Notes under the pieces: generated by a model | The model's database searches: none | Seen by the model: only the letters and a program-made list of their open reading frames with translations | Told to the model about the DNA's origin: nothing | DNA from: Lachnospiraceae bacterium | GTDB lineage: Bacteria > Bacillota > Clostridia > Lachnospirales > Lachnospiraceae | Assembly (NCBI GenBank): GCA_017557525.1 | Contig: JAFYYN010000111.1 | Span: 62,001 to 126,000, forward strand | Direction of reading: 5' to 3' | Length of the DNA stretch: 64,000 bases | Made by a program: the position numbers and the translations under genes | Shown: positions 38,916 through 52,376 of the stretch, piece after piece | How positions within the stretch are numbered: position 1 is the first letter of the stretch | Layout: the number at the start of each line of letters is the position of its first letter

Positions 38916-38963
38916 AAATTGATTATGCGTATAGGAAAGTCTGAGAAAGAGCTTTAAGACTTC

Positions 38964-39009
38964 CATCGGTGTATAAGGCAGGCACATCACCGGTGCGTAA
39001 GCATGCCTG
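38964..39009 (+). ncRNA. Pseudoknot leader motif, copy 1 (folD)
   Basis: Stem CATCGGTG (38964-38971) / CACCGGTG (38988-38995). Loop bases CAGGCA (38979-38984) pair with TGCCTG (39004-39009). Eight bases separate the stem from the second pairing strand. The folD ribosome site AGGA begins five bases later, so folding should hide the start region. Confidence 0.6.
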
Positions 39010-39025
39010 CAACAGGATATGAAGT

Positions 39026-39886
39026 ATGGCACAGATAGTAAAGGGAGCGGATGTTGCCGCGAAACTAAGAGAGAATATAAAGGAGCGTCTGGAAGCGCTG
39101 AGAGCTAAAGGCAGGGATGCAAAGCTTTCAGTACTTAGCGTTGGGGATGACCCGGCCAATGCTTCATATGAACGCGGGATAATAAAGGTTTTTACAACTC
39201 TTGGGATTGCCTATGAAAAGGTAGTACTTGAAGGTAATTGCACTCAAGCTGAGTTTGATAAGAAGTTTACTGAGATAAATGAAGATCCTTCAGTTACCGG
39301 CATACTGGTATTCAGACCCCTGCCCAAGCCTTTAAGCGTAGAGTTTGCGGCAAGGACAATTGACCCCGACAAGGATATTGACTGCATGGGCTATTACAAC
39401 CAGGCATCTACCGCTATGGGTAGCAAAGACTGCTTTTACCCCTGTACAGCCGAGGCAGTGCTAAAGTTTATAGAATTTGAAGAGATAGACCTTGCTTTTA
39501 AGAATGTGGTAGTTATAGGCAGAAGTACGGTAGTTGGCAGACCCCTTGTTTCCATGCTGATCTCAAGAAACGCAACTGTAACCTGCTGTCATACAAAGAC
39601 TGCTGATATCACTGACAGGATAAGCAATGCAGATATCGTGGTTACCGCTGCCGGCTCGAGAGGTTTGTTAAAGGGCGACATGATGAAAAATGCTAAGAAG
39701 GACTGTTTCTGCATAGATGTCGGCATAAATATGCGTGAGGATGGTCAGGGCATTTGCGGAGATATTGAGTTTGAGAGCGTAGAGCCTTTAGCAGGAAAGA
39801 TAACAACAGTACCCGGAGGCGTAGGGTCGGTAACAAGCACGCTTCTTGCAGAGCATGTAGTAAGGGGCGCTGAGCTGAAGCTTTAA
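39026..39886 (+). CDS. folD: Methylene-THF dehydrogenase / methenyl-THF cyclohydrolase
   Basis: Bifunctional enzyme interconverting 5,10-methylene-, methenyl- and 10-formyl-THF with NADP. Motifs seen include the catalytic Tyr/Lys region (ASYERGIIK; Lys replaced by a shifted context typical of clostridial FolD) and the Rossmann segment VVVIGRSTVVGRPL, the family signature. PGGVGSVT lies near the C-terminus. The 286-residue length is standard. It carries its own promoter and a pseudoknot leader, separated from the other folate genes by the chemoreceptor. Confidence 0.93.
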   Translation: MAQIVKGADVAAKLRENIKERLEALRAKGRDAKLSVLSVGDDPANASYERGIIKVFTTLGIAYEKVVLEGNCTQAEFDKKFTEINEDPSVTGILVFRPLPKPLSVEFAARTIDPDKDIDCMGYYNQASTAMGSKDCFYPCTAEAVLKFIEFEEIDLAFKNVVVIGRSTVVGRPLVSMLISRNATVTCCHTKTADITDRISNADIVVTAAGSRGLLKGDMMKNAKKDCFCIDVGINMREDGQGICGDIEFESVEPLAGKITTVPGGVGSVTSTLLAEHVVRGAELKL

Positions 39887-39923
39887 AATTGATTTTTTAG
39901 TTAATAAATGATGCTCTTGTGCA

Positions 39924-39932
39924 TGGTATAAT
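39924..39932 (+). promoter_or_regulatory. Extended -10 promoter for LEA-like gene
   Basis: TGGTATAAT, an extended -10 element with the perfect TATAAT at 39927-39932; no convincing -35. Confidence 0.45.
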
Positions 39933-39968
39933 GAGTGAGGGCACATATTTATAAAGGAGGATTCATAG

Positions 39969-41621
39969 ATGAGTATTGATGAATTCAAGCAGAAAGCCAA
40001 TGAAATAAAGGAGAATCTTGAGCCTAAGGTCAAAGAAACAGCTAAGAAGGCCGGCAAGAAGGTAAAGTCCGCCGGTGAAAAGGTTTCCGAGTTTGCTTCA
40101 GAGCATTTCTCAAAGAAGGATGACGCAAAGGACCTTGACGGGAAGGACATAGTTGAGGCTGAGTACAGGGATATTACCGATGAGTTAGAAGAAACTGCCG
40201 AGGCTGTGGATGAGGCTGTAGAGGAGACTGCTTCCGAAACAGAAGAAAAAACAGGTAAAGAGAAGAAGCAGGATAAGAAAAATAAAAAGAAGGACAATAA
40301 GCGCAACAAGAAGAATAAAAAGGATGCCGAAGAGCCTGTAAAAGAGGCAGAGGTTAATGAGACTCCTGAAGTAGATAATGCAGAAAGCGATGTTTCGATA
40401 GATGACCTCTTTGTAGACAGTACAACGGATGAAACCGGTGCTGAGGCTGATGAAACAGAAACTGAGACAGCAGATGCTTCTGATGAGGATGCAGATACAG
40501 AAGATAAGACCACTGACGATGAGGACGGGGAAGCATCAGAAGAAAAACATGAATCTGAGATAGAGCGTATCGAGGGTGTTGTAGTCGGTACGATGAAGGA
40601 TAAATTTGAGCAGTTTAAGACCAATGTACTTCCTAAGGTAAAGGATGTTGCCGTTAATGTAGGTGAAAAGGTTAAGGATACTGCTCAGGAGCTTGCACCT
40701 AAAGCAAAAGAAACCATACAGGATTTAGGTCCTAAAGCAAAGGAGACCATACAGGACTTGGGCCCTAAGGCTAAGGATACTGTACAGAATATCGGTAGCA
40801 AGATAAAGGAAACAGCACAGAGCTTCGGACCTAAGGTTAAAGATACCGTACAGGATTTTGCACCAAAAGCCAGGGATACGGTAGTTGATACCGCTAAGCA
40901 GGTAGGCCCCAAGATGTACGAGGGCGCAAAGAAAGCCGGCGAGACAATCAGCTTCCAGGGCTATAGACTTCGTAAGTCCATAGGAAAGAAGATGAAAAAT
41001 TCCATAAGAAAGAAACTTGGGCTTGGTGAAGACCCGAGTGATACCGATGGGATAAAATACTATGAGCTTAAGCGTAAGAAAACCAACAGATTAGTTGCAC
41101 ATGCAAGAACGGTCATCACTCATAAGAACCTTGTGTTTAAGCACTGCGTAAAGGCCGGCATCCCGGTACAGGGTATTACTCATGACCTTTCTAAGTTTTC
41201 TCCTACCGAGTTCTTTAACGGAGTAAAATTCTACAGGGGAGACAAGAGCCCTAACGAAGGCGAGCGCGAGGATCACGGTTTCTCATATGCATGGATGCAT
41301 CACAAGGGCAGGAACAAGCATCATTTCGAGTACTGGAATGATTATAATTTAGAGGCTAACAAGGCATTGCCTGTTAAGATGCCTTTAAAGTACGTCATTG
41401 AGATGTTCTGTGACAGAGTTGCAGCCAGCAAGGTTTACCTTAAGGATAAATACACAAATAAGAGTCCTTATGAGTATTTCGACAAGGGCAGGTCACGCAG
41501 GACCATCCATCAGGAAACAAGCGATTTCCTTGAGAAACTGCTCAAGATGCTTGCAGAAAAAGGCGAGCCTTATACATTTATGTATATAAGATGGTATAAG
41601 AAACACCATAAAGATTACTAA
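39969..41621 (+). CDS. LEA-like 11-mer repeat protein fused to DUF5662-like domain
   Basis: A 550-residue soluble protein of three parts. Residues 1-40 and about 220-320 are amphipathic Lys/Glu helices; the latter is a run of nine 11-residue repeats on the pattern PKAKETIQDLG, as in group 3 LEA or apolipoprotein-like proteins. Residues 60-200 are extremely acidic and low complexity. The last ~190 residues (YYELKRKKTNRLVAHARTV onward) resemble DUF5662, with conserved HDLSKFSPTEF and several His that could bind a metal. AGGAGG precedes the ATG. LEA-type helices usually protect membranes or proteins in stress; coupling to a putative metal-enzyme domain is new to me. Confidence 0.7.
   Translation: MSIDEFKQKANEIKENLEPKVKETAKKAGKKVKSAGEKVSEFASEHFSKKDDAKDLDGKDIVEAEYRDITDELEETAEAVDEAVEETASETEEKTGKEKKQDKKNKKKDNKRNKKNKKDAEEPVKEAEVNETPEVDNAESDVSIDDLFVDSTTDETGAEADETETETADASDEDADTEDKTTDDEDGEASEEKHESEIERIEGVVVGTMKDKFEQFKTNVLPKVKDVAVNVGEKVKDTAQELAPKAKETIQDLGPKAKETIQDLGPKAKDTVQNIGSKIKETAQSFGPKVKDTVQDFAPKARDTVVDTAKQVGPKMYEGAKKAGETISFQGYRLRKSIGKKMKNSIRKKLGLGEDPSDTDGIKYYELKRKKTNRLVAHARTVITHKNLVFKHCVKAGIPVQGITHDLSKFSPTEFFNGVKFYRGDKSPNEGEREDHGFSYAWMHHKGRNKHHFEYWNDYNLEANKALPVKMPLKYVIEMFCDRVAASKVYLKDKYTNKSPYEYFDKGRSRRTIHQETSDFLEKLLKMLAEKGEPYTFMYIRWYKKHHKDY
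40632..40928 (+). repeat. Nine 33-bp tandem coding repeats
   Basis: Nine units of 33 bp each encode an 11-residue helix. Units at 40698-40730 and 40731-40763 are nearly identical at DNA level; outer units are more diverged, as expected if expansion occurred in the centre. Not a CRISPR: no unique spacers. Confidence 0.85.
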
Positions 41622-41625
41622 ACGT

Positions 41626-41690
41626 CATAAAGAGGGACCCACGAAGTGGGAAGATGTCTTATGATACGGCTCCATCGTGAAACGATGGAG
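41626..41690 (+). promoter_or_regulatory. Two hairpins in aconitase leader
   Basis: Hairpin one is CCCAC-GAA-GTGGG (41638-41650), enclosed by CATAA-a-GA / TCTTATG (41626-41633 / 41657-41663). Hairpin two is a perfect nine-base stem CTCCATCGT / ACGATGGAG with a GAA loop (41670-41690). No T run follows, so they are not typical terminators. They may protect or regulate the aconitase mRNA. Confidence 0.5.
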
Positions 41691-41735
41691 TGAAGGCGTA
41701 GAGATGTAAGAAAATGAAAGGATAAGAAATTTAAA

Positions 41736-44072
41736 ATGGATCTGATTAAATCACAAGTGTATCTCGTAAACGGAGAGCTTTTAGGAGCTGAGGAAGCAAA
41801 GGCTAAGGGAGTGGATGTAACAGATGCTTCCTTAAGGAACAATACCATTAGCTTTGGTATTATGAACAAGCATAACACATCAGGTGACCCTGAAAAGATG
41901 AAGATCAAGTTTGACAAGATCACATCTCACGATATCACCTATGTTGGTATTATCCAGACAGCCCGTGCCAGTGGACTTGAAAAGTTCCCCATACCCTATG
42001 TGCTTACAAACTGCCATAACTCATTATGTGCAGTTGGCGGAACTATAAATGAGGATGACCATATGTTTGGCCTTACCGCCACAAAGAAATACGGCGGAGT
42101 TTATGTACCACCTCATCAGGCAGTTATTCACCAGTTTGCAAGAGAAATGCTTGCAGGCTGCGGTGATATGATACTTGGTTCCGACTCACATACAAGATAC
42201 GGTGCACTCGGTACCATGGCTATCGGTGAAGGCGGCGGAGAGCTTGCAAAGCAGCTGCTCGGCAGGACCTATGATGTTAACAGACCCGAGGTTATTTGTA
42301 TCTATCTTACAGGAAAGCCTAATTTCGGCGTAGGCCCTCACGATGTTGCACTTGCACTTGTAGGCGCTACCTTTGATTCAGGTTTTGTAAAGAACAAGGT
42401 GCTTGAGTTTGTAGGCCCCGGAATAAAGAATTTAAGCGTTGATTTCCGTATCGGTATAGATGTTATGACAACCGAGACCACATGTCTTTCATCAATCTGG
42501 GAGACAGATGATCAGGTTGAGGAGTGGTTAGGCATCCATGGCAGAAAGAATGCGTACAAGCCTTTAAGCACAAACGGAGTTGCATGCTACGACGGTGCTG
42601 TTGTTATCGATCTTTCAACGATCAAGCCTATGATCGCTATGCCTTTCCATCCTTCAAAGGCATATGCAATCGCAGATGTTAAGGCAAACCTTAAGGATTA
42701 CCTGCATGAGTGCGAGGAGAGAGCTAAGGTAAGCTTTGGCGATAAGTGCGAATATTCACTGATGGATAAGATAATAGACGGCAAGCTCTATGTTGAGCAG
42801 GGAATCATTGCCGGATGTGCAGGCGGTGGATTTGAGAATATCTGCGAGGCAGCAGATATCTTAGGTAACGCTGATATCGGAAACGGTAAGTTCTCACTTA
42901 GCGTTTACCCTGCTTCAATGCCTGTTTATATGGAGCTTGTTAAGAACGGAGCCGCTGCTAAGCTTATTGAAGCCGGTGCAGTTATTAAGACAGCTTTCTG
43001 CGGTCCCTGCTTTGGTGCAGGAGATACACCCGCAAACAATGCGTTCAGTATCCGTCACAGCACACGTAACTTCCCGAACAGAGAGGGTTCAAAGATCCAG
43101 AACGGTCAGATTTCTTCAGTTGCTCTTATGGATGCAAGGTCCATCGCAGCTACCGCAGCAAACAAGGGCTTCCTTACTGCTGCTGATGAGCTTGAAGGTA
43201 TCGAGATCAATAAATATAAGTATTTCTTTGATAAGACCATCTATGACAGAAGAGTACTTGACTGCGTAGGCAAGGCTGATACAAAGGCAGAGATCCACTT
43301 TGGCCCCAATATCAAGGACTGGCCTAAGATGAATGAGCTTGCAGACAATCTTCTTATAAAGTGTGTAAGCGAGATCCATGATCCTGTTACCACAACTGAT
43401 GAGCTTATCCCTTCAGGTGAGACATCTTCATACAGATCCAATCCTTTAGGACTTGCTGAGTTTGCGCTTTCTCGCCGTGATCCTGATTACGTCGGTGAGT
43501 CAAAGAAGGTTAGAGCAGTTGAAAAGGAAAGACAGATCAGGATGAACAGGGCAGCAGGCTTAAGTACTCCTGAGAATGAGATTGATCAGTACGGCTTTGC
43601 TAAAGACGCCGGTGAGCTTAAATCTGAATATGAGTCAGTTTTAAAGAAGGTTACCGATGCATTTAAGGCAGAGGAAAAGGATATTTGTCTTGGCAGTACC
43701 ATTTTCTGCACTAAGCCCGGTGACGGCTCTGCACGTGAGCAGGCTGCTTCCTGTCAGAAGGTACTTGGAGCCTGGGCAAATATCGCGGGCGAGTATGCTA
43801 CCAAGCGTTATCGTTCAAATCTTATCAACTGGGGTATGCTTCCTTTCCTTTATGCAGGTAATGAGATACATAAGGGAGATTATGTATTCGTTCCCGATGT
43901 AAGAAAAGCACTTACAGATAAGATTGATGAGATAAAGGCTTATGTATTAAGCAAACAAGCTGACGGCACATTTGCTGATGCTAAGGAAGTTATCTTTACT
44001 CTTGGCTCATTAAGCGATGACGAGAGACAGATAATACTTGACGGCTGTCTGATCAATTTCTACAGGAATTAA
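41736..44072 (+). CDS. Aconitase-family hydratase (YbhJ-like)
   Basis: A 778-residue aconitase-superfamily protein. Fe-S cluster cysteines are probably those in TNCHNSL, IAGCAGGG and FCGPCFGAGDTP; GSDSHTRYGALG is the conserved substrate loop and a C-terminal swivel domain is present. It belongs to the YbhJ-like branch that many Clostridia use. Being 700 bp from an NADP isocitrate dehydrogenase gene argues that it does the citrate-to-isocitrate step. GGATAAG-type spacing precedes the ATG. It ends without a clear terminator, consistent with read-through to icd. Confidence 0.85.
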   Translation: MDLIKSQVYLVNGELLGAEEAKAKGVDVTDASLRNNTISFGIMNKHNTSGDPEKMKIKFDKITSHDITYVGIIQTARASGLEKFPIPYVLTNCHNSLCAVGGTINEDDHMFGLTATKKYGGVYVPPHQAVIHQFAREMLAGCGDMILGSDSHTRYGALGTMAIGEGGGELAKQLLGRTYDVNRPEVICIYLTGKPNFGVGPHDVALALVGATFDSGFVKNKVLEFVGPGIKNLSVDFRIGIDVMTTETTCLSSIWETDDQVEEWLGIHGRKNAYKPLSTNGVACYDGAVVIDLSTIKPMIAMPFHPSKAYAIADVKANLKDYLHECEERAKVSFGDKCEYSLMDKIIDGKLYVEQGIIAGCAGGGFENICEAADILGNADIGNGKFSLSVYPASMPVYMELVKNGAAAKLIEAGAVIKTAFCGPCFGAGDTPANNAFSIRHSTRNFPNREGSKIQNGQISSVALMDARSIAATAANKGFLTAADELEGIEINKYKYFFDKTIYDRRVLDCVGKADTKAEIHFGPNIKDWPKMNELADNLLIKCVSEIHDPVTTTDELIPSGETSSYRSNPLGLAEFALSRRDPDYVGESKKVRAVEKERQIRMNRAAGLSTPENEIDQYGFAKDAGELKSEYESVLKKVTDAFKAEEKDICLGSTIFCTKPGDGSAREQAASCQKVLGAWANIAGEYATKRYRSNLINWGMLPFLYAGNEIHKGDYVFVPDVRKALTDKIDEIKAYVLSKQADGTFADAKEVIFTLGSLSDDERQIILDGCLINFYRN

Positions 44073-44097
44073 GCTTGAAATTATATTTTCAAACTTC

Positions 44098-44142
44098 CAT
44101 CGGTGCCGCGACAGGTACTGCATCGATGTGTAAGCATGCCTG
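44098..44142 (+). ncRNA. Pseudoknot leader motif, copy 2 (C39-like gene)
   Basis: Stem CATCGGTG (44098-44105) / CATCGATG (44121-44128, one G-T pair). Loop CAGGTA (44112-44117) pairs with TGCCTG (44137-44142, one T-G pair). Eight bases separate the elements. GAGG overlaps the 3' end and lies eight bases before ATG 44154. It is nearly the same sequence as the hisB copy. Confidence 0.6.
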
Positions 44143-44153
44143 AGGCATGATAT

Positions 44154-44738
44154 ATGATTAAAATCAGATTAAAAAACAGGCCATATGGGTTTATATATTC
44201 GGATTCCCTGCCGCAGAGCGGATATACAGAGGTGAAGATACCTGCGGCAGCAGATCGTGTTGCAATAACGGGGGATTATTTCGAGATAGCGGATAATCAC
44301 TGTGCAGCCATTTGTACGATGAATACGATGCTGCTTATGAGACAGCACGGTAAGGGAGATATAAGGAGACACCGTTTCGGAAATGATTTCCTTGAAATAT
44401 TTAAGGATATCCACAAGATTGTTGGAAACGGCCCCATCATATTTTATAAACCAAAGTTCAACAGATATTTTAAGTCTAAGGGCTCAAAGGTTCATGCTGT
44501 GCCGATCTCAAGATTTGAGGACATAGAAAATGCCATACGTGAGAAAACACCTGTACCGATGATGGTCAATGCGGGGATTTCCCATTGGCACTGGATACTG
44601 GTAATCGGCATCAGAAAGTATATGGACGGAAGTATTTACTTAAACATCCTTGACGGCTGGAATAAGAGGACCGACAGATATCTGAGATATAATGGAAGAG
44701 AAACGTTTATCAGAGCTTTAAAACCCACCTTCCCATAG
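44154..44738 (+). CDS. C39-peptidase-like papain-fold protein
   Basis: A 194-residue protein with a papain-like triad in order: Cys in NHCAAICTMNT (about residue 44-48), His in SHWHWILVIG (about 146) and Asp in NILDGWN (about 165). This matches the C39-like family of cysteine peptidase folds. No ABC domain, signal peptide or leader-peptide substrate is next to it, so classic bacteriocin processing is not supported. It sits between the aconitase and icd genes and is probably cotranscribed, with a pseudoknot before its start. Function is unknown. Confidence 0.6.
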   Translation: MIKIRLKNRPYGFIYSDSLPQSGYTEVKIPAAADRVAITGDYFEIADNHCAAICTMNTMLLMRQHGKGDIRRHRFGNDFLEIFKDIHKIVGNGPIIFYKPKFNRYFKSKGSKVHAVPISRFEDIENAIREKTPVPMMVNAGISHWHWILVIGIRKYMDGSIYLNILDGWNKRTDRYLRYNGRETFIRALKPTFP

Positions 44739-44771
44739 AGGTGAAGGCATATAATAGGAGGAAAATGGAAA

Positions 44772-45980
44772 ATGGACAAGATCAGAATGACAACACCCCT
44801 CGTTGAGATGGATGGGGATGAGATGACAAGGATCATCTGGAAAATGATAAAGGATGAATTACTCTGTCCTTATATCGATTTAAAGACAGAGTATTATGAT
44901 TTGGGACTTAAGTACAGGGACGAGACTGATGACCAGGTAACTGTTGATTCGGCAAACGCCATCAAGAAATACGGCGTAGGTGTTAAGTGTGCAACCATTA
45001 CACCCAATGCTGCAAGAGTTAAGGAATATAACTTAAAGCAGATGTGGAAGAGTCCCAATGGTACAATACGTGCCATACTTGACGGAACAGTTTTCAGAGC
45101 TCCTATCATTGTTAAGGGTATTGATGCATACGTTCCTCATTGGAAAAAGCCTATCACAATTGCGCGTCATGCATACGGTGACATTTACAAGGCTACCGAG
45201 ATGAAGATCGATAAGCCCGGAAAGGCTGAGCTCGTATTTACCGATGCGGATGGTAACGAGACAAGAGAGCTTATCCATGATTTCAAGGCACCCGGCATAA
45301 TCCAGGGTGTACATAACCTTGATGCCTCAATCGAAGGCTTTGCAAGGAGCTGCTTTAATTTCGCACTTGACACAAAGCAGGATCTCTGGTTTGCAAGCAA
45401 GGATACAATTTCAAAGAAATATGATCATAACTTTAAGGATATTTTTGCTGACCTTTATGAGAATGAATATAAGGCAAAATTTGAGGCAGAGGGTATCACA
45501 TATTTCTATACACTGATAGATGATGTTGTAGCCCGTGTTATCAAGTCTGAGGGCGGTTTTATCTGGGCATGCAAAAACTATGACGGTGATGTAATGAGCG
45601 ATCTGCTTGCTACAGCATTCGGTTCACTTGGTATGATGACCTCAGTGCTTGTTTCTCCTGACGGAAATTATGAGTATGAGGCTGCTCATGGTACAGTACA
45701 GCGTCACTACTACAAGTATCTTGACGGACAGCCCACATCGACAAACTCTGTTGCTACCATCTTTGCATGGACAGGTGCTTTAAAGAAGCGTGGCGAATTA
45801 GACAATATCGCAGAGCTTTCCGCATTTGCAGAGAAGCTTGAAAAGGCTACGATCGCAACAATAGAGGGCGGCACAATGACAGGGGACCTTGCTCTTATCA
45901 GCAAGCTTCCCAATGTAAATAAGGTTAACACCTTAGAGTTTATACAGGCAATCAGGGCAGAACTTGAGAAAATGTTATAA
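44772..45980 (+). CDS. icd: NADP-dependent isocitrate dehydrogenase (eukaryotic-like type)
   Basis: Oxidative decarboxylation of isocitrate to 2-oxoglutarate with [18 protein letters not shown] and the substrate loop SPNGTIR are typical of the homodimeric type II IDH shared with eukaryotes, not the E. coli type. The 402-residue length fits. AGGAGG precedes the start by nine bases. With the aconitase it makes the oxidative half-branch leading to glutamate. No citrate synthase gene is in the window. Confidence 0.95.
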
Positions 45981-46029
45981 TGCAACATTAATCCTAACTT
46001 AAAGACATTTAATAAACAAGAGGTAAATT

Positions 46030-46194
46030 ATGTTTGACGTTGTACAGGAAATGTTTTCAATGAATCCCGGAGTGGTAGTAGCGATAGTTGCGTTTTTTAT
46101 AATGGTACTTATAGCTATAATTGCAGCTGTTGTCGCAGCTGTAGCTACAACAGTAGGTGTTGAGACAAGGGACAAAGAGGGTACTAACGAATAG
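46030..46194 (+). CDS. Small single-pass membrane protein (54 aa)
   Basis: ATG 46030 follows AAGAGG; 54 codons end at TAG 46192-46194. The peptide has one long membrane segment at about 15-42 (VVVAIVAFFIMVLIAI onward, Val/Ala-rich), a short N-terminus and a charged tail ETRDKEGTNE. I do not recognise it. It lies directly before the pseudoknot and cNMP-NhaC gene, so a small accessory subunit of that transporter is possible. Too short for homology inference here. Confidence 0.5.
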   Translation: MFDVVQEMFSMNPGVVVAIVAFFIMVLIAIIAAVVAAVATTVGVETRDKEGTNE

Positions 46195-46201
46195 CACCCT
46201 T

Positions 46202-46245
46202 ACGGTTTGTGGAGCAGGCAGCACAGACCGTGAAAAACATGCCTG
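46202..46245 (+). ncRNA. Pseudoknot leader motif, copy 3 (cNMP-NhaC gene)
   Basis: A ten-base stem ACGGTTTGTG (46202-46211) / CACAGACCGT (46222-46231) differs completely in sequence from copies 1 and 2. Loop CAGGCA (46215-46220) pairs with TGCCTG (46240-46245). Eight bases separate stem and second strand, as elsewhere. ATG 46260 is 14 bases on. Confidence 0.6.
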
Positions 46246-46259
46246 ATTAAGACAAAAAT

Positions 46260-48191
46260 ATGTCCGAAAGACAGATAGACGAAAAATATATATGTGATTT
46301 CTTTGGGATATCTGACAGTCCTTCAGGCAAAAAGGAGCTTGAGGAAATCCGAAAGAAGCTTATAAAGGTCACATTTGAGAACGGTAAGGATATTTGCAGG
46401 GTAAATGAAGAAGCAGACGGGATGTATTTCCTGGAATCGGGGACCTGTGAGGTACTGAATGCCGATGGCGAACAGATAAATATTATGCATGAAGGGCAGT
46501 ATTTCGGTGAATACGGAGTACTGTCCGGGCAGAACCGTCTTTCAACGGTAAGGTCATTGGGTAAAACAGTACTCTACAAGCTGGAAAGTAAGGATATGAT
46601 GAAAATCATATCCCGACATCCTGACATTTACGGAAAACTGATGAAAAAGGTATATGGGGAGGTTAGTAATAAGCATTCCCAGATACTGGCGCTTTCCGGT
46701 ATGAGAAAGGGTATACTTCAGCATCCGTCGAACCAGGTACCTATGAGTAAGCGACAGATGCTTATTCAGTACGGCAGCCTTGCTTTGATATATATCTTGG
46801 CAGGAATATTTATCCCTAAAGATTCGGTATGGCCTTTATTTTTATTGCCTCTTGCTTTGATGCTGGTACATGTGCTTATAACAAAACGTACAATAGAGTC
46901 GCTGATCGTTGCAGGTCTCTTAGAGGTTATACTGATATTCCGTACAGAACCTGCGTCCGGATATGCTATTTCTCTAGTAGAAACCATGTCATCGGTGGAT
47001 AACGCCTTTACGGTACTGGTCATGGCACTAATGGGCGGCATGGTAAATCTGATCGCAGCATCAGGAGGAGTTACAGCATTTAAAAAGTTTTCGGACAGGA
47101 CCTGTACAACCAGCAGGAAGGTGTTTTTTACGTCACTGGGGATAATGGCAGTTACATCTATAGATGACGGCCTTAATATGATGTGCGCTTCAACAGCCAC
47201 CTATAAGTCTGCCAGAGAAAACGGGATAGTTAGAGAAAAGCTTGGACTGTTTTACAGTATGCTCCCTACAGTGCTTTCATCGTTCCTGCCAATGTCATTA
47301 TGGGGTATCTTTGTAATAGGTACCATGACTGTTTCGACAGGTGATGAGACCATCGGACTTTTCTGTAAGTCAATACCGTTTAATTTCTTTTCCATAATTA
47401 CAGTTATATTTATGTTTTTGCTGGGTTTAAGAAAGTTGCCGAGAAACAAACAGCTAAAGGCTGCAGAGGAGAGATATAAAAACGGCGGTAAGCTATGGCC
47501 CAAGGGCTCTGAGAAATACCTGAATGTCAACGAGCCTGAGGTTTGGGGTAAGGTTTTTAATGTAATAATACCTATAATAGTACTTGCAGTTGCATCACTC
47601 CTGCTCAGGAGCCTTTTTGACGGGAGCTTCGTATTGGACAGCTCAGTAGGTCTCGTAGCAGCACTTATCGTGATGTTTATCATGTACTGTGCCCAGGGAC
47701 TTATGTCACCCGAACAGTTTATGGAGCATCTGATTACCGGTATAGCAAACTCAGCATTACCTATTATAATGTATCTGCTAACGATGTGTTTCTCATCGCT
47801 ACTTGAGACATTGTCGATAGATACATATTTATCGGATACTTTTGGACTTTTTAAGGAGATGGCACCCGTAATGCCGGCAGTATTGTTTATCATATCGGTA
47901 CTGCTTACGATGGCACTGGGTTCATCCTGGTCGATGTATGCGATCATTTTCCCGATAACCGTAAATCTTGTCAATGCAATGGGGCTTTATCCGGCATTAT
48001 GCATTGGCGCTGTAGCAGGAGCGGGTATTGCCGGGGAAAAGATATGTATGTTTACGGCGGATGCCTTAAATGTGGGTACGTCCATCGGCTGTAACCCCGA
48101 TGAAATCTGCAGGGTCAGAGTATTTTACAGTATGGTTATAGCAGGTATAGCCGCTGTCGGCTATCTTGTAGCAGGGATAATTACATATTAG
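46260..48191 (+). CDS. Cyclic-nucleotide-binding domain fused to NhaC-type Na+/H+ antiporter
   Basis: Residues about 35-145 are a cNMP-binding (CAP-like) domain with the phosphate-cassette-like GQYFGEYGVLSGQNR. From about 165 to the end a ~450-residue NhaC-superfamily transporter with ten or more membrane segments follows, containing the GSSWSMYAI and SIDDGLN conserved loops. NhaC proteins exchange Na+ for H+ or organic ions. The cNMP domain lacks the exact Arg-Thr/Ala pair of classical cAMP receptors, so the ligand is uncertain. Fusion suggests ligand gating. Start at ATG 46260 with a weak ribosome site behind a pseudoknot. Confidence 0.85.
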   Translation: MSERQIDEKYICDFFGISDSPSGKKELEEIRKKLIKVTFENGKDICRVNEEADGMYFLESGTCEVLNADGEQINIMHEGQYFGEYGVLSGQNRLSTVRSLGKTVLYKLESKDMMKIISRHPDIYGKLMKKVYGEVSNKHSQILALSGMRKGILQHPSNQVPMSKRQMLIQYGSLALIYILAGIFIPKDSVWPLFLLPLALMLVHVLITKRTIESLIVAGLLEVILIFRTEPASGYAISLVETMSSVDNAFTVLVMALMGGMVNLIAASGGVTAFKKFSDRTCTTSRKVFFTSLGIMAVTSIDDGLNMMCASTATYKSARENGIVREKLGLFYSMLPTVLSSFLPMSLWGIFVIGTMTVSTGDETIGLFCKSIPFNFFSIITVIFMFLLGLRKLPRNKQLKAAEERYKNGGKLWPKGSEKYLNVNEPEVWGKVFNVIIPIIVLAVASLLLRSLFDGSFVLDSSVGLVAALIVMFIMYCAQGLMSPEQFMEHLITGIANSALPIIMYLLTMCFSSLLETLSIDTYLSDTFGLFKEMAPVMPAVLFIISVLLTMALGSSWSMYAIIFPITVNLVNAMGLYPALCIGAVAGAGIAGEKICMFTADALNVGTSIGCNPDEICRVRVFYSMVIAGIAAVGYLVAGIITY

Positions 48192-48243
48192 AATACAAAT
48201 GTGCGTTACAGCCGTACATTTTTAAGGTTTTTTCAAAATCTAC

Positions 48244-48273
48244 TTGACAAGAGGGCTGTATCTTCGTTATAAT
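48244..48273 (+). promoter_or_regulatory. Promoter for the his genes
   Basis: Perfect TTGACA (48244-48249), an 18-bp spacer and perfect TATAAT (48268-48273). The ~70-nt leader is too short for a T-box; it holds the palindrome CACTTTAAAGTG before hisZ. Confidence 0.85.
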
Positions 48274-48350
48274 ACGAACAATTCAATTTGCTAATTTGAT
48301 AATTTGGTAGCACTTTAAAGTGATAAAGTATTGGAAGGCATGGTATATGT

Positions 48351-49463
48351 ATGAATAAGAGGTTGTTCACAACTCCTGAAGGAGTAAGAGATATCTATGA
48401 CGGTGAATGTAAACGTAAGCTTGACTTAGAGACAAAGCTGAGAGCTAAGCTGCATCTATACGGATTTGAAGATATCGAGACACCGACATTTGAATATTTT
48501 GAGGTCTTTAGTGAGGAACGTGGTACCGTAAAAGCAAGGGATATGTATAAATTCTTTGACAGAGACGGAAATACGCTTGTCTTAAGGCCTGATATGACCC
48601 CTTCGATAGCAAGGTGTGCGGCAAAGTATTTTAAGGATGAAAAAGGACCGGTAAGATTCTGTTACTGTGGACATACATTTATAAATAATTCTGAATATCA
48701 GGGAAAGCAGAAGGAAACGACACAGCTCGGATGTGAGCTGATCAATGATTCTTCAGTTATTGCAGATGCAGAGATGCTTGCTGCAACGATTGACTGTCTG
48801 CTTGAAGCAGGACTTAAAGATTTCAGGATCGATATAGGAGATGTAAGATTCTTTAAGGCACTGATCGCTGAGTCCGACCTTGATGAAGAAAGGATCAGGA
48901 TATTAAAGAATTTCATAGTAGACAAAAACAGCTTTGGTATCAAGGACTTACTAAAGGATGAAAATATAAGCGAAGAGCTTAAAAATATCCTGACAAATCT
49001 TCCCCAGTTTTTCGGGGGCGTTGACTGTCTTGATAAAGTAAGCTCCATGACCGGTAATAAGGATGCGCTGCTGGTATTCGATCACCTAAAGGCCCTGTAT
49101 GAACTTATGAAGGTTTACGGCTTTGAGAAATATATCGGCTTTGATCTTGGCATGATCAGTAAGTACGAATATTATACCGGTATCATATTCCATGCGTTTA
49201 CCTATGATGTCGGAGAGCCCATAGCTTCGGGCGGAAGATACGATAATCTTGTAGGACAGTATGGTAAAAAGGCAGCGGCTATCGGTATGACGATCGTAAC
49301 AGATAAGTTGCTGCTGGCGCTTTCCAGACAGGGACTATTATCAAAGGATACCGATAAGCCTGTAGAGATAATAAGTTCAGAAAGATCACAGAGCGATGCT
49401 GTTAAGAGGGCTGTCGAGCTGAGACGCGAAGGTAAGAGCTGCACGATTACCTATAATAATTGA
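48351..49463 (+). CDS. hisZ: ATP phosphoribosyltransferase regulatory subunit
   Basis: A 370-residue HisRS-like protein lacking the anticodon-binding domain. TPEGVRDI and class II synthetase-like motif LRPDMTPSIAR are present, as is ASGGRYDNL. It partners the short-form HisG downstream to form an octameric ATP phosphoribosyltransferase. The start codon is preceded by a weak AAGG. Full-length tRNA synthetase HisS is excluded by the length and missing C-terminal domain. Confidence 0.9.
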   Translation: MNKRLFTTPEGVRDIYDGECKRKLDLETKLRAKLHLYGFEDIETPTFEYFEVFSEERGTVKARDMYKFFDRDGNTLVLRPDMTPSIARCAAKYFKDEKGPVRFCYCGHTFINNSEYQGKQKETTQLGCELINDSSVIADAEMLAATIDCLLEAGLKDFRIDIGDVRFFKALIAESDLDEERIRILKNFIVDKNSFGIKDLLKDENISEELKNILTNLPQFFGGVDCLDKVSSMTGNKDALLVFDHLKALYELMKVYGFEKYIGFDLGMISKYEYYTGIIFHAFTYDVGEPIASGGRYDNLVGQYGKKAAAIGMTIVTDKLLLALSRQGLLSKDTDKPVEIISSERSQSDAVKRAVELRREGKSCTITYNN

Positions 49464-49559
49464 TCATTATGCTTGTATAACCGATAGCCTGTATAAATGC
49501 TGTTGATTGATGTAAATATTTGAAATTTGATAAGTCTGATAGAGATAGGAATTTAGTAT

Positions 49560-50198
49560 ATGAGATATATTACGATAGCCCTGGCAAAGGGCAGACTGGC
49601 AAAGCAGTCGATGAAAATACTTAATCAGCTGGGTATCAGATGTGATGAAATGAATGATCCGGATACCAGAAAGCTGATATTTGAAGATCAGGAGCACGGC
49701 TTCAGATTTTTCCTTGCAAAAGCAAACGATGTACCGACTTATGTTGAGTATGGTGCAGCAGATATCGGAATAGTTGGAAAGGATACCATAGTTGAAGAGG
49801 GCAGAAGCCTTTACGAGGTATTAGACCTTAACTTAGGTAAATGCAGGATGTGTGTTGCGGGACCTGCAAGTGCCAAGGAGAGTTTAAATAATGGTTCTCT
49901 TATCAGGGTAGCTACAAAGTATCCTAAGATTGCCAAGGATTATTTCAACAACACAAAGCACCAGACTGTAGAGATAATAAAGCTCAACGGATCAATAGAG
50001 CTTGCACCGATTGTTGGTCTTTCAGAGGTAATCGTTGATATTGTAGAAACCGGCTCAACACTTAGGGAAAACGGTCTAGAGGTTTTGGAAGAAATTCTTC
50101 CACTTTCTGCAAGAGTTGTCGTAAATAAAGTAAGCATGAAGATGGAGCAGGAACGTATTACTAAGCTCATAAACGATATGAGTGCTATTGTTTCATAA
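49560..50198 (+). CDS. hisG: ATP phosphoribosyltransferase catalytic subunit, short form
   Basis: First step of histidine synthesis: ATP plus PRPP to phosphoribosyl-ATP. MRYITIALAKGRL at the start and the PRPP-binding loop EIVDIVETGSTLREN are the family marks (here VIVDIVETGSTL). The 212-residue length is the HisZ-dependent short form, without the C-terminal histidine-binding domain. A TAGGA site precedes the ATG. Confidence 0.95.
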   Translation: MRYITIALAKGRLAKQSMKILNQLGIRCDEMNDPDTRKLIFEDQEHGFRFFLAKANDVPTYVEYGAADIGIVGKDTIVEEGRSLYEVLDLNLGKCRMCVAGPASAKESLNNGSLIRVATKYPKIAKDYFNNTKHQTVEIIKLNGSIELAPIVGLSEVIVDIVETGSTLRENGLEVLEEILPLSARVVVNKVSMKMEQERITKLINDMSAIVS

Positions 50199-50276
50199 AA
50201 GCGACCAATTGTATTTTTTTAGTCAAACAAAGGCTTCCCCTTGTAATGAAATATTATGATTTTGGGATAATCCCTG

Positions 50277-50322
50277 CATCTTAGACGGAGCAGACGCGTC
50301 GAAAGATGAAAGTTCTGTCTGC
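50277..50322 (+). ncRNA. Pseudoknot leader motif, copy 4 (hisD)
   Basis: Stem CATCTT-a-GACG (50277-50287) / CGTC-ga-AAGATG (50297-50308) shares no sequence with copies 1-3. Loop GCAGAC (50290-50295) pairs with GTCTGC (50317-50322). The eight-base spacer is kept. AAGGA begins three bases on, before ATG 50340. Both helices are fully changed yet still complementary. Confidence 0.55.
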
Positions 50323-50339
50323 AGTAAGGAATCGGAGTT

Positions 50340-51629
50340 ATGAAAATTGTTAAGTTAGATGCAAGTTCAAAGAATGATTTACTGGTTAAGTTACTTAAAA
50401 GAAGCCCTTCACAGTATACCGAGTTTGAAAACAAGGTAGCTCAGATCATTGAGAATATCAGAGCAGGCAAGGACAGAGCACTTTTTGATTATACAAAACA
50501 GTTTGATAAGTGTGAACTAAATGAAAAGAATATCGAGGTAACCGAGGGAGAGTTTAAGGAAGCTTATGATACAATTGACCCTGAGTTACTCGAGACTATC
50601 AGAAAGTCAGCTGCAAACGTAAAGAAATTCCATGAAAAGCAGAAGCAGAGAAGCTGGTTTGACACTGAAGAAAACGGTATTTTCCTAGGACAGAAGATTA
50701 CCGCTATCGAAAAAGTTGGTGTTTATGTACCCGGTGGTAAGGCTGCTCTTGCTTCTTCCGTACTTATGAATATTATCCCTGCTAAGGTAGCGGGAGTTTC
50801 AAGCATAAATATGTGTACACCTCCCAATGCAGAGGGCAAGGTTAACAATGCAATACTTGTTGCTGCAAAGGAGGCAGGTGCAGACAGAGTATTTAAGGCA
50901 GGCGGAGCACAGGCAATAGCTGCTATGGCTTATGGTACAGAGTCAATCCCCAAGGTTGACAAGGTTGTAGGCCCCGGAAACATCTATGTAGCGTTAGCAA
51001 AGAAGAGAGTATATGGAAATGTCGGCATCGATTCAATTGCCGGCCCCAGCGAGATACTTGTACTTGCAGACGAGACAGCTAATCCTAAATTCGTTGCGGC
51101 AGATTTACTCAGCCAGGCAGAACATGATGAGCTTGCTTCAGCGATACTTATTACTACCAGTCAGGAGCTGGCTGAAATGGTATCTGATGAAGTAAAGGCA
51201 TTTACAGAAAAGCTTTCACGTAAAGAGATCATTGAAAAATCACTCGAGAACTATGGCTATATCCTTGTGGCAGATACAATGGATGAGGCTATAGATGCAG
51301 TTAACGAGATAGCTTCCGAGCACTTAGAGGTGCTTACAAAGGATCCTTTTGTAACACTTTCAAAGATCAAAAATGCCGGTGCTATATTCCTTGGATCATA
51401 TTCAAGCGAGCCTTTGGGAGACTATTTCGCAGGTCCTAACCACATACTTCCTACAAACGGAACCGCAAGATTTTTCTCAGCACTTTCAGTTGACGACTTT
51501 ATCAAGAAATCAAGCGTTATTGCTTATTCAAAGGAAGCGCTTGAGGCAATACACATTGATATCGAGAGATTCGCAAAGGCAGAGGGTCTTACAGCACACG
51601 CAAATTCTGTAGCGGTTCGTTTCGAGTAA
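50340..51629 (+). CDS. hisD: Histidinol dehydrogenase
   Basis: Last two steps of histidine synthesis: histidinol to histidine with NAD. The family signature around VGVYVPGG, the zinc-binding LLSQAEHDE stretch, and GPNHILPT are present. The 429-residue length is standard. Start ATG 50340 lies behind a pseudoknot whose 3' strand abuts the ribosome site. Confidence 0.95.
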   Translation: MKIVKLDASSKNDLLVKLLKRSPSQYTEFENKVAQIIENIRAGKDRALFDYTKQFDKCELNEKNIEVTEGEFKEAYDTIDPELLETIRKSAANVKKFHEKQKQRSWFDTEENGIFLGQKITAIEKVGVYVPGGKAALASSVLMNIIPAKVAGVSSINMCTPPNAEGKVNNAILVAAKEAGADRVFKAGGAQAIAAMAYGTESIPKVDKVVGPGNIYVALAKKRVYGNVGIDSIAGPSEILVLADETANPKFVAADLLSQAEHDELASAILITTSQELAEMVSDEVKAFTEKLSRKEIIEKSLENYGYILVADTMDEAIDAVNEIASEHLEVLTKDPFVTLSKIKNAGAIFLGSYSSEPLGDYFAGPNHILPTNGTARFFSALSVDDFIKKSSVIAYSKEALEAIHIDIERFAKAEGLTAHANSVAVRFE

Positions 51630-51660
51630 TTCAATCAGAGGGACGCTTCTCTTGATTGAA
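51630..51660 (+). repeat. Dispersed hairpin repeat, copy at hisD end
   Basis: TTCAATCAGAG (51630-51640) and CTC-T-TGATTGAA (51649-51660) form a stem around GGACGCTT. A near-identical copy lies at the end of trmD (60433-60462). No T run follows, so it is not a clear terminator. Confidence 0.65.
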
Positions 51661-51730
51661 TCCAAAATTAGGGAAGGTGTCAAAGAAAACGACGGATGAG
51701 TGTAAGTTTGAGGCTGGATTTTCAAACTTC

Positions 51731-51775
51731 CATCGGTGCCGCAACAGGCACGTCACCGATGTGTAAGTATGCCTG
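51731..51775 (+). ncRNA. Pseudoknot leader motif, copy 5 (hisB)
   Basis: Stem CATCGGTG (51731-51738) / CACCGATG (51754-51761); loop CAGGCA (51745-51750) pairs with TGCCTG (51770-51775); eight-base spacer. About 70 bp around it nearly match copy 2. ATG 51792 follows by 16 bases, with only a degenerate GTGG as ribosome site. Confidence 0.6.
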
Positions 51776-51791
51776 TGGCATGATACGAAAT

Positions 51792-52376
51792 ATGAGAACA
51801 GCAGAAGTAAGCAGAAAAACTAAAGAAACAGACATATATATAAAGATCAACCTTGATGGTACAGGCAAATCTGATATAAGCACAGGCATCGGATTTTTCG
51901 ACCATATGCTTATAAGCTTTGCAAAACATAGCTTTATCGATCTTGAGGTTAAGGTAAAGGGTGATCTGCAGGTAGACGGACATCATACAGTTGAGGATAC
52001 CGGCATTGTTCTGGGTGAGGCTTTAAAGCAGGCATTAGGAGACAAGGCAGGCATAAAGAGATACGGATCAAGCATACTTCCCATGGATGAGACACTTGTA
52101 CTTGCTGCTGTTGACTTCTGTGGCAGACCTTATCTCAACTACAATCTTACTTTTACGATGCCAAGGATAGGGGAGCTTGACAGCGAGCTGATCAGAGAAT
52201 TTTTCTATGCAGTTTCCTATTCAGCAGCCATGAACCTGCATATCAAACAGCTTGACGGCACAAACTGTCACCACATTGCAGAGGCTGCATTTAAGGCATT
52301 TGCAAAGGCTGTTGATGAGGCAAAGACAGTGGATCCGAGAGTATCAGGTACACTTTCGACTAAGGGAAGCTTATAA
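51792..52376 (+). CDS. hisB: Imidazoleglycerol-phosphate dehydratase
   Basis: Dehydrates imidazole glycerol phosphate to imidazole acetol phosphate using Mn2+. The His-rich signatures DGHHTVEDTG and NCHHIAEAAFKA plus GFFDHML are all present. The open frame extends upstream to 51696, but residues before MRTAEVSRKT match nothing and overlap the pseudoknot, so ATG 51792 is chosen, giving the normal 194 residues. No strong ribosome site is seen. A terminator closes the unit. Confidence 0.93.
   Translation: MRTAEVSRKTKETDIYIKINLDGTGKSDISTGIGFFDHMLISFAKHSFIDLEVKVKGDLQVDGHHTVEDTGIVLGEALKQALGDKAGIKRYGSSILPMDETLVLAAVDFCGRPYLNYNLTFTMPRIGELDSELIREFFYAVSYSAAMNLHIKQLDGTNCHHIAEAAFKAFAKAVDEAKTVDPRVSGTLSTKGSL

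What the first reader, a model, noticed from the sequence alone, without database searches (positions are those of the whole stretch)
38964..51775. Five pseudoknot RNAs of conserved geometry before unrelated start codons
Seen directly: before folD, the C39-like gene, cNMP-NhaC, hisD and hisB a stem is followed by a second helix formed by a six-base loop segment and a downstream strand. In all five the spacer from stem to second strand is exactly eight bases, and the second strand ends 11-17 nt before the start codon. Stems differ wholly (CATCGGTG, ACGGTTTGTG, CATCTT plus GACG) while staying complementary; the second helix also changes (CAGGCA/TGCCTG versus GCAGAC/GTCTGC) and one copy uses wobble pairs. 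Such co-variation supports structure over sequence repeat. Inferred: folding hides the ribosome site, so ligand, temperature, protein or translation of the upstream gene could control it. Sequence does not match SAM-II, preQ1, ZTP or THF classes as I know them. Two copies (44098, 51731) are also near-identical over ~70 bp, suggesting spread by duplication.
Basis: partly seen in the sequence, partly recalled or inferred. Interest (0 to 1): 0.85.

Follow-up and report, generated by a model that had tools for sequence, protein, structure and literature searches.

The report
Start-codon pseudoknots scattered through a genome
In bacteria of the Lachnospiraceae a short folded RNA element, apparently inserted between the ribosome-binding site and the start codon, sits in front of dozens of unrelated genes, which suggests a mobile piece of DNA that takes over how translation starts.

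Summary
The five pseudoknots are there and are the only convincing copies in the window. They belong to an RNA family that Rfam 15 did not match: 79 model matches in this genome, matches in 13 of 24 genomes of the genus and, after reading, in five other genera of a family sample. Both helices covary: 8 of the 9 highest mutual-information column pairs of 1801 are S1/S2 pairs. In 110 of 130 filtered copies S2 ends 14-16 nt before the AUG.

The element is present gene by gene: hisB in 1 of 23 genomes, dnaB 1 of 23, ileS 2 of 17, rsmE 2 of 22. Of 81 element-free orthologous leaders 78 have a good Shine-Dalgarno (SD); of six filled ones two reach the same limit, barely. In filled ileS and dnaB an SD-like stretch lies before P0. 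Downstream genes are functionally mixed.

Best reading: a mobile-like leader cassette that separates SD from AUG and takes over initiation. Structure and insertion history are well supported; translational mechanism and any signal are inferred. No experiment, transposase or ligand was identified.

The parts
38937..39028 (+). Copy 1 before folD: P0 hairpin 38937-38962; S1 38964-38971 with 38988-38995; S2 38978-38984 with 39004-39010; L3 38996-39003; 15-nt tail; ATG 39026
   Evidence: 64.0 bits, E 2e-20
44071..44156 (+). Copy 2 before the C39-like gene: P0 44071-44096, beginning inside the stop codon (44070-44072) of the upstream aconitase-family gene; S1 44098-44106 with 44120-44128; S2 44112-44117 with 44137-44142; 11-nt tail; ATG 44154
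   Evidence: (57.8 bits)
46178..46262 (+). Copy 3 before the cNMP-binding/Na+:H+ antiporter gene: P0 about 46178-46200, with the stop codon (46192-46194) of a 54-codon upstream ORF in its loop; S1 46202-46211 with 46222-46231; S2 46215-46220 with 46240-46245; 14-nt tail; ATG 46260. Type-B stem
   Evidence: (31.3 bits, E 9e-9)
50264..50342 (+). Copy 4 before hisD: P0 GGGATAATCCC 50264-50274; S1 50277-50282+50284-50287 with 50297-50300+50303-50308; S2 50290-50295 with 50317-50322; 17-nt tail; ATG 50340
   Evidence: 36.7 bits, E 1e-10
51704..51794 (+). Copy 5 before hisB: P0 51704-51729; S1 51731-51741 with 51751-51761 (one mismatch); S2 51744-51750 with 51770-51776; 15-nt tail; ATG 51792 (in-frame ATG also at 51780). 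Not found before hisB of 22 other genomes of the genus
   Evidence: (81.3 bits, E 2e-26)

Best explanation
A dispersed, mobile-like family of about 90-nt structured leader elements. Each copy is a 5' hairpin (P0, lost or weak in about a third of copies), then an H-type pseudoknot (S1 about 8-12 bp, S2 6-8 bp mostly GCAGGCA/TGCCTGC, junction loop mostly 0-1 nt, L3 about 8 nt), then a tail of about 15 nt that ends at the AUG. Copies are gained gene by gene by insertion between the gene's Shine-Dalgarno and its AUG, which moves the old SD about 90 nt upstream. Initiation then has to run from the element itself: the pseudoknot sits just outside the mRNA channel of the 30S subunit, about 15 nt before the AUG, followed by a weak AAGG or almost no SD. 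I think most likely that the pseudoknot helps place or load the 30S (a start module), possibly tuned by a host factor. Shown: covariation of both helices, register to the AUG, multi-copy state, element-free orthologs with good SD, SD-like sequence upstream of P0. Inferred: direction of change (gain rather than repeated loss), mobility mechanism, effect on translation, any signal.
For: Family: 70 (R1, E <= 0.1) and 79 (R2, E <= 0.001) matches in the own genome. Covariation: 88.0% of cells paired against 78.8% in shuffles, 144 double-change cells against 44.8, 0 of 500 shuffles as high, slid registers at most 40.2% paired; without assuming a structure, S1/S2 pairs take ranks 2-9 of 1801 column pairs and 13 of 18 are in the top 25. 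Register: S2 end to ATG 14-16 nt in 110 of 130. Gain: element in hisB of 1 of 23 genomes, dnaB 1 of 23, ileS 2 of 17, rsmE 2 of 22. SD complementarity of -5 kcal/mol or better within 22 nt of the ATG: 78 of 81 element-free leaders of these four genes (hisB 21/22, ileS 16/16, dnaB 21/22, rsmE 20/21) against 2 of 6 filled ones (both ileS, -5.2). Junctions: ileS without element AGAAGGAGGAAAAAAGATT-ATG (G010), with element GAGAGGAGGAAA-[AAGATT...]-ATG (G000); dnaB without TAAAGGAGCATCAAC-ATG (G001), with TAAGGGGTAC-[AAGTTTG...]-ATG (G000). In the 89 of 130 copies with P0 of at least 6 bp, complementarity of -7 or better lies directly before P0 in 24% against 3, 2 and 9% in three windows further upstream (Mann-Whitney p 2e-6); the S2-to-ATG stretch has 4%. 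Similar copies stand before different genes in one genome, and close ones before hpt and a kinase-like gene in another genus.
Against: No transposase, target duplication or insertion motif was found (by eye; 9 fetched Y1-transposase loci hold no copy, best E 0.39). The 41 copies without P0 show no SD excess upstream; in G000 alone the excess is weak (p 0.024, 44 copies). Only four genes were checked for element-free orthologs; hisB in G000 has no clear old SD before P0. In 11 pairs before homologous genes, stem changes were 6 compensatory, 8 one-sided and 15 breaking, and in one pair (glnA) proteins are 95% but elements only 55% identical, so selection on structure after insertion is shown only weakly and some pairs may be separate insertions. 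Both models contain the ATG, and the 130 counted copies were filtered for pseudoknot energy and S2 sequence (24 of 154 dropped), which favours regular copies. No expression data.
Confidence: 0.5

Rival explanations
1. A classical cis-regulatory regulon: an old leader RNA, responsive to a metabolite or an RNA-binding protein, that represses or activates translation of its genes; patchy presence is loss.
For: Structure and register are those of a translational leader. 11 cross-genome pairs of copies precede homologous genes, ileS in G000 and G008 with 3 compensatory stem changes and 1 break. Nucleotide-metabolism genes recur: purF, purE, pyrD, carA, purA, purD, pyrG, hpt by eye.
Against: Functions are very mixed (tRNA synthetase, DnaB, Der, glycosidases, chemotaxis, two-component, transporters). 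Presence in 1-2 genomes with good SDs in 78 of 81 element-free leaders fits gain better than loss. Where an SD-like AAGG exists it is not inside S1 or S2.
Confidence: 0.22
2. A selfish miniature element: the structure serves its mobility (for example as folded single-stranded DNA) and the effect on the host gene is incidental.
For: Many similar copies, no coding capacity seen, element-free orthologs, P0 weaker in divergent copies. Strong IS200-like Y1 transposase hits occur in 6 of 24 genomes, all six among the 13 with elements, though genome size and kinship confound this. Stem-breaking changes outnumber compensatory ones in the 11 pairs.
Against: A purely selfish element should also sit away from starts; of 21 hits of a pattern without tail or ATG (at most 1 mismatch), 19 precede an ATG and the other 2 lack the stem and look like chance matches. 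That divergent copies keep S1, S2 and register while P0 weakens points the same way, but those copies had been filtered for S1 and S2.
Confidence: 0.18
3. A split ribosome-binding site: the fold between SD and AUG brings the displaced SD back near the AUG, as in T4 genes 25 and 38, so insertion is tolerated.
For: Complementarity of -5 kcal/mol or better directly upstream of P0 in 48% of 89 P0-bearing copies against 15, 24 and 30% in control windows; it weakens with divergence together with P0 (window includes part of P0); precedent in PMC3014915 (passages read).
Against: About 15 nt of tail plus linkers remain outside the fold, more than the 5 and 11 nt of the T4 cases, and an H-type pseudoknot puts its 5' and 3' ends at opposite ends of the stack (geometry from general knowledge). 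About half of the P0-bearing copies lack such an upstream SD.
Confidence: 0.1

Closest known systems
Pneumococcal BOX, RUP and SPRITE repeats (PMC3049150; passages read)
   Same: Small interspersed repeats that can be transcribed with neighbouring genes and form RNA structure
   Different: Those lie at many intergenic places and are over-represented between convergent genes; here copies keep a register to an AUG and have a covarying pseudoknot
TAACTGA direct repeats of marine Beggiatoaceae (PMC4679880; abstract and section headings read)
   Same: Many copies a few nucleotides upstream of start codons of functionally mixed, partly essential genes; a heading says canonical RBS are rare there; translational role proposed
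   Different: Heptamer direct repeats, not an insertable folded cassette
T4 gene 25 and 38 split ribosome-binding sites (PMC3014915; passages read)
   Same: RNA structure between SD and AUG
   Different: Single-gene phage cases with 11 and 5 nt residual spacing; not described there as multi-copy or mobile
H-type pseudoknot leaders: SAM-II, preQ1-II, NAD+-II riboswitches (architecture recalled), rpsO/S15 and T4 gene 32 (passages)
   Same: Pseudoknot in the leader before the translation start
   Different: No Rfam match, no ligand known, far more target genes; SD not inside the pseudoknot
IGR IRES active in bacteria (PMC9458429; start of abstract in a listing only)
   Same: RNA with pseudoknots reported to drive translation in E. 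coli
   Different: Viral and larger (recalled); no relation tested

Membership tests
Any Rfam 15 family | Match at the family's gathering score | tested here: not met
   0 matches in the window and in 20 loci with diverse copies; with a loose threshold 3 unrelated matches far below cut-off, none on the five elements
Structured cis-acting RNA | Covariation of the proposed helices beyond shuffled and slid controls | tested here: met
   subset of 42 rows with R1 >= 45 bits: S1 91.7% paired and 44 double-change cells against 81.0% and 10.9 shuffled
Structured cis-acting RNA | Formation of the structure in RNA, change of gene expression | not testable with these tools
   needs probing and reporters
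Miniature mobile element (MITE-like) | Many short non-coding copies at unrelated sites | tested here: met
Miniature mobile element (MITE-like) | Element-free sites in close relatives | tested here: met
   hisB, dnaB, ileS, rsmE; four genes only
Miniature mobile element (MITE-like) | Terminal inverted repeats and target-site duplication | tested here: inconclusive
   P0 is a hairpin at the 5' end; flanks read by eye showed no duplication; no systematic test
REP/RAYT or IS200-IS605 derivative | Linked Y1 transposase that carries the same ends | tested here: inconclusive
   Y1 genes in 12 of 24 genomes, 25 matches; 9 fetched Y1 loci hold no copy (best E 0.39)
Metabolite riboswitch | Downstream genes share a pathway | tested here: not met
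   mixed functions in 65 of 69 own-genome proteins scanned; enrichment not tested formally
T4-type split RBS | SD upstream of a structure whose folding leaves 5-11 nt to the AUG | tested here: inconclusive
   SD-like sequence upstream in part of the copies; residual tail 14-16 nt in 110 of 130

The most novel reading that the evidence does not exclude
A mobile translation-start module: a bacterial element that inserts between SD and AUG and, through a pseudoknot docked at the mRNA exit side of the 30S, replaces SD-led initiation (an IRES-like start in bacterial genomes), thereby rewiring expression of dozens of genes, probably essential ones included.
Probability: 0.3. Interest if true: 0.92.

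Novelty: new variant of a known kind. Interest (0 to 1): 0.8.

Why it matters
If right, insertion of a folded RNA cassette into the narrow SD-AUG interval is a way to rewire translation gene by gene, and natural filled/empty ortholog pairs give a ready experiment on whether structure can replace an SD. It would also add a structured-RNA family with dozens of copies per genome to the Lachnospiraceae, and a possible portable translation-control part.

Tried and rejected
Rfam at gathering and loose thresholds gave nothing relevant. A generic pseudoknot descriptor hardly separates the window from shuffles. A local hairpin CATGCC/GGCATG that would compete with S2 looked like a switch in type-A copies, but has no covariation support over the family (270 of 500 shuffles as high in pairing); energy folding of single copies without pseudoknots does predict it in some, so it may still matter in type-A copies. 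Four of the ten genomes with an R2 match in the order sample (392 searched) lie outside the family; their hits were read by eye as coding sequence or a terminator-like stem. In the family sample G093, G169, G112, G032, G218 and G402 were not accepted, G076 and G183 are left open; G690 was not accepted. The single pattern hit in Haladaptatus has no S1 or S2 around it. IS200-like Y1 loci as autonomous partner: no element within the nine fetched. No match to the hisB copy in plasmids or phages and none of one exact pattern in viral contigs. Literature: searches (listings) and passages of two surveys of new bacterial RNAs (PMC11109978, PMC8632094) gave no description of this element; the library holds only open-licence PMC papers, so absence from print is not established.
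Full report
What is in the window. Reading the sequence confirms all five pseudoknots. A scan with the second covariance model and no filters puts exactly these five on top; the sixth hit falls to 12.9 bits. P0 begins inside the stop codon of the aconitase-family gene in copy 2 and holds the stop codon of a 54-codon ORF in its loop in copy 3. Single pseudoknots of this size are not rare by chance; the argument rests on the family.

The family in this genome. The pattern TGTGTAAGNATGCCTG, which contains neither S1's 5' strand nor the tail, has 36 matches with up to 2 mismatches against 3 backwards. Of the 21 with at most 1 mismatch, 19 lie just before an ATG that opens a frame; the other two lack the stem (frames). 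Two of the 19 (L010, L020) have no S1 5' strand. Model R1 (22 copies, P0 and S1 paired) finds 70 matches at E <= 0.1, R2 (88 diverse copies, S1 to ATG) 79 at E <= 0.001. Of 71 distinct own-genome matches read, weak ones included, 69 have an ATG opening a frame of at least 30 codons at the 3' end; the models contain that ATG, so this count is biased, the pattern count is not.

Structure. The best pseudoknot of 140 of 154 distinct copies beats all 20 mononucleotide shuffles of the same stretch. In 130 filtered copies S1 is 8-12 bp in 120, S2 6-8 bp in 122, the junction loop 0-1 nt in 101, L3 7-9 nt in 95, and S2 ends 14-16 nt before the ATG in 110. On alignment A5 (88 rows) 17 of 18 pairs have double changes; 144 double-change cells stand against 44.8 in shuffles, and sliding the register drops pairing from 88.0% to at most 40.2%. 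A5 rows had been chosen partly for pairing, so I repeated the count on the 42 rows with R1 >= 45 bits, which I expect to be detectable without S1: S1 91.7% paired and 44 double-change cells against 81.0% and 10.9; S2 94.2% paired and 7 against 91.8% and 1.5. Mutual information without any assumed structure puts S1/S2 pairs at ranks 2-9 of 1801 and 13 of 18 in the top 25; five pairs rank low (183, 267, 1057, 1465, 1602), and the top rank (columns 8-12) is not a structure pair and may reflect subtypes. A competing local hairpin is not supported by covariation.

Distribution. 13 of 24 genomes of the genus match R2 at E <= 0.001: 79, 29, 29, 18, 12, 6, 3, 3, 3 and four with one, two of these four weak (1e-4, 5e-4). 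In a family sample of 397 genomes, scored strictly (13 candidates each), 14 match at 1e-4; reading 17 loci I accept the own genome and five others in different genera, with copies before hpt, a guanylate-kinase-like gene, thiC, pgi, nrdR and others in the same register (gene names by eye). In an order sample of 392, ten match; thiC of a second genome in one genus and an rlmH-like start in another genus of the family were added, nothing believable outside the family. Named matches of one pattern are ten stretches from four MAGs titled Lachnospiraceae bacterium (water buffalo rumen, goat omasum, and one RUG isolate) and one chance-like stretch from Haladaptatus. Presence inside the genus is patchy: 11 of 24 genomes have no match, four of them at least 90% complete and at most 5% contaminated.

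Gain at single genes. R2 over ortholog loci of four genes finds the element in hisB of 1 of 23 genomes, dnaB 1 of 23, ileS 2 of 17 (18 loci with the N-terminus) and rsmE 2 of 22 (23 loci); all loci have at least 120 nt of leader. Element-free leaders of these genes have a good SD (-5 kcal/mol or better) in 78 of 81, with medians of -8.6, -10.2, -7.2 and -6.4 (hisB, ileS, dnaB, rsmE); the six filled ones have -2.8 (hisB), -5.2 and -5.2 (ileS), -1.7 (dnaB), -2.1 and -1.7 (rsmE). HisB of G008 is 98% identical but its leader is a plain AAAAAGGAGTTTGA-ATG. Several element-free ileS leaders read AGGAGGAA(N)-ATG, and in G000 and G008 the SD-like stretch is followed by P0 and the rest of the element before the ATG. 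dnaB in G001 runs stop codon-AGGAGCATCAAC-ATG, in G000 stop codon-GGGGTAC-element-ATG. Over copies with P0 of at least 6 bp (89 of 130), strong SD complementarity is enriched immediately upstream of P0 (24% against 3, 2, 9%; p 2e-6; G000 alone p 0.024) and rare between S2 and ATG (4%), where 23 element-free window ORFs that I picked have 43%. The 41 copies without P0 show no upstream excess. With growing divergence of the 3' part, P0 and the upstream SD weaken (Spearman 0.36 and -0.36, p about 3e-5), S1 weakens less (-18.2 to -15.9 kcal/mol, p 0.002), the mean register stays at 14.5-15.2 but its spread grows from 0.7 to 1.9 nt. The upstream window includes part of P0, the divergence measure includes the tail and the copies were filtered for S1 and S2, so this trend is indicative only.

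Function of the genes. Pfam was run on 65 of 69 own-genome proteins (60, five); 11 of the 60 had no family at 1e-5. The rest cover ABC transporter, cyclophilin, histidine kinase, short-chain dehydrogenase, PurF, D-Tyr-tRNA deacylase, CheW, rhomboid, BlaR1, Pth, PyrD, CarA, GdpP, AroE, Der, class I tRNA synthetase (ileS by eye), a FliI-like ATPase, glutamine synthetase, DnaB, MutS domain V, ProC, GH94, GH67, PriA, TrmK, RelA/SpoT, RsmE, HPr kinase, RnfC, thioredoxin, PurE and others. Purine and pyrimidine genes recur, but no theme covers the set. That argues against one metabolite and for something general. Genes such as ileS, dnaB, der and pth are essential in most bacteria (general knowledge), so the element must at least permit translation.

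Mechanism. I commit to a start module that inserts between SD and AUG and then carries initiation. The distance of about 15 nt places the pseudoknot where the mRNA leaves the 30S (general knowledge), so it can dock or act as a fixed neighbour without being melted. A split site like T4 genes 25 and 38 is possible for some copies but the residual spacing is long. Against any strong claim of selection after insertion: in 11 pairs before homologous genes stem changes were 6 compensatory, 8 one-sided, 15 breaking, with 152 unchanged; the ileS pair gives three compensatory changes and one break; the glnA pair has 95% protein but 55% element identity.

Mobility. No transposase was found in association. 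Y1 transposases occur in 12 of 24 genomes; the strong IS200-like ones occur in six, all with at least one element, but weaker, longer (RAYT-like, by eye) ones also in element-free genomes, and nine of 25 Y1 matches, fetched with flanks, hold no element. 'Mobile-like' is therefore an inference from copy number, similarity and element-free orthologs.

Verdict. A real RNA family, not matched by Rfam and not found in my literature searches, with an unusual place of insertion. It resembles small interspersed repeats on one side and pseudoknot leaders on the other, and fits neither fully; hence new variant of a known kind, with a bolder reading kept open.

Noticed in passing
L182 501-601, L167 501-580, L172 (- strand, match 1301-1397), L199 501-595: Sister elements: P0-like hairpin, a CTCTGTGCC/GGCACAGAG-type S1 and TGYAAACG, but a local hairpin (GTGCC TTNC GGCAC) instead of the S2 pseudoknot; L199 precedes an aldolase-like gene. 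Possibly a second, related family.
   Followed up: partly
window 51664-51703 and leaders in L126, L275, L277: Another repeat of the type GGGGAAGGTGTC...GACGGATGAGGTG lies in several element-bearing or element-free leaders (hisB, dtd, dnaB).
   Followed up: no
window 51630-51663: Inverted repeat TTCAATCA...TGATTGAA right after the hisD stop codon.
   Followed up: no
G000:C34:54327-54653 (beside rsmE at C34:54729-55511), also G020:C15 and G010:C57: A Y1-transposase-domain gene of about 250 codons sits next to rsmE in three genomes, possibly a RAYT-like domesticated transposase.
   Followed up: no
copies with GCATGATACGAAAT-ATG tails, e.g. window 51780-51794: These tails contain an extra ATG 12 nt upstream and in frame with the start codon; which of the two is used is open.
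   Followed up: no
L114, L149, L090 leaders: GG(G)GACGGTTCTC-type repeats overlap or adjoin P0 in three copies.
   Followed up: no
window 41620-41735: Leader of the aconitase-family gene holds two imperfect inverted repeats (CCCACGAAGTGGG, CTCCATCGTGAAACGATGGAG).
   Followed up: no
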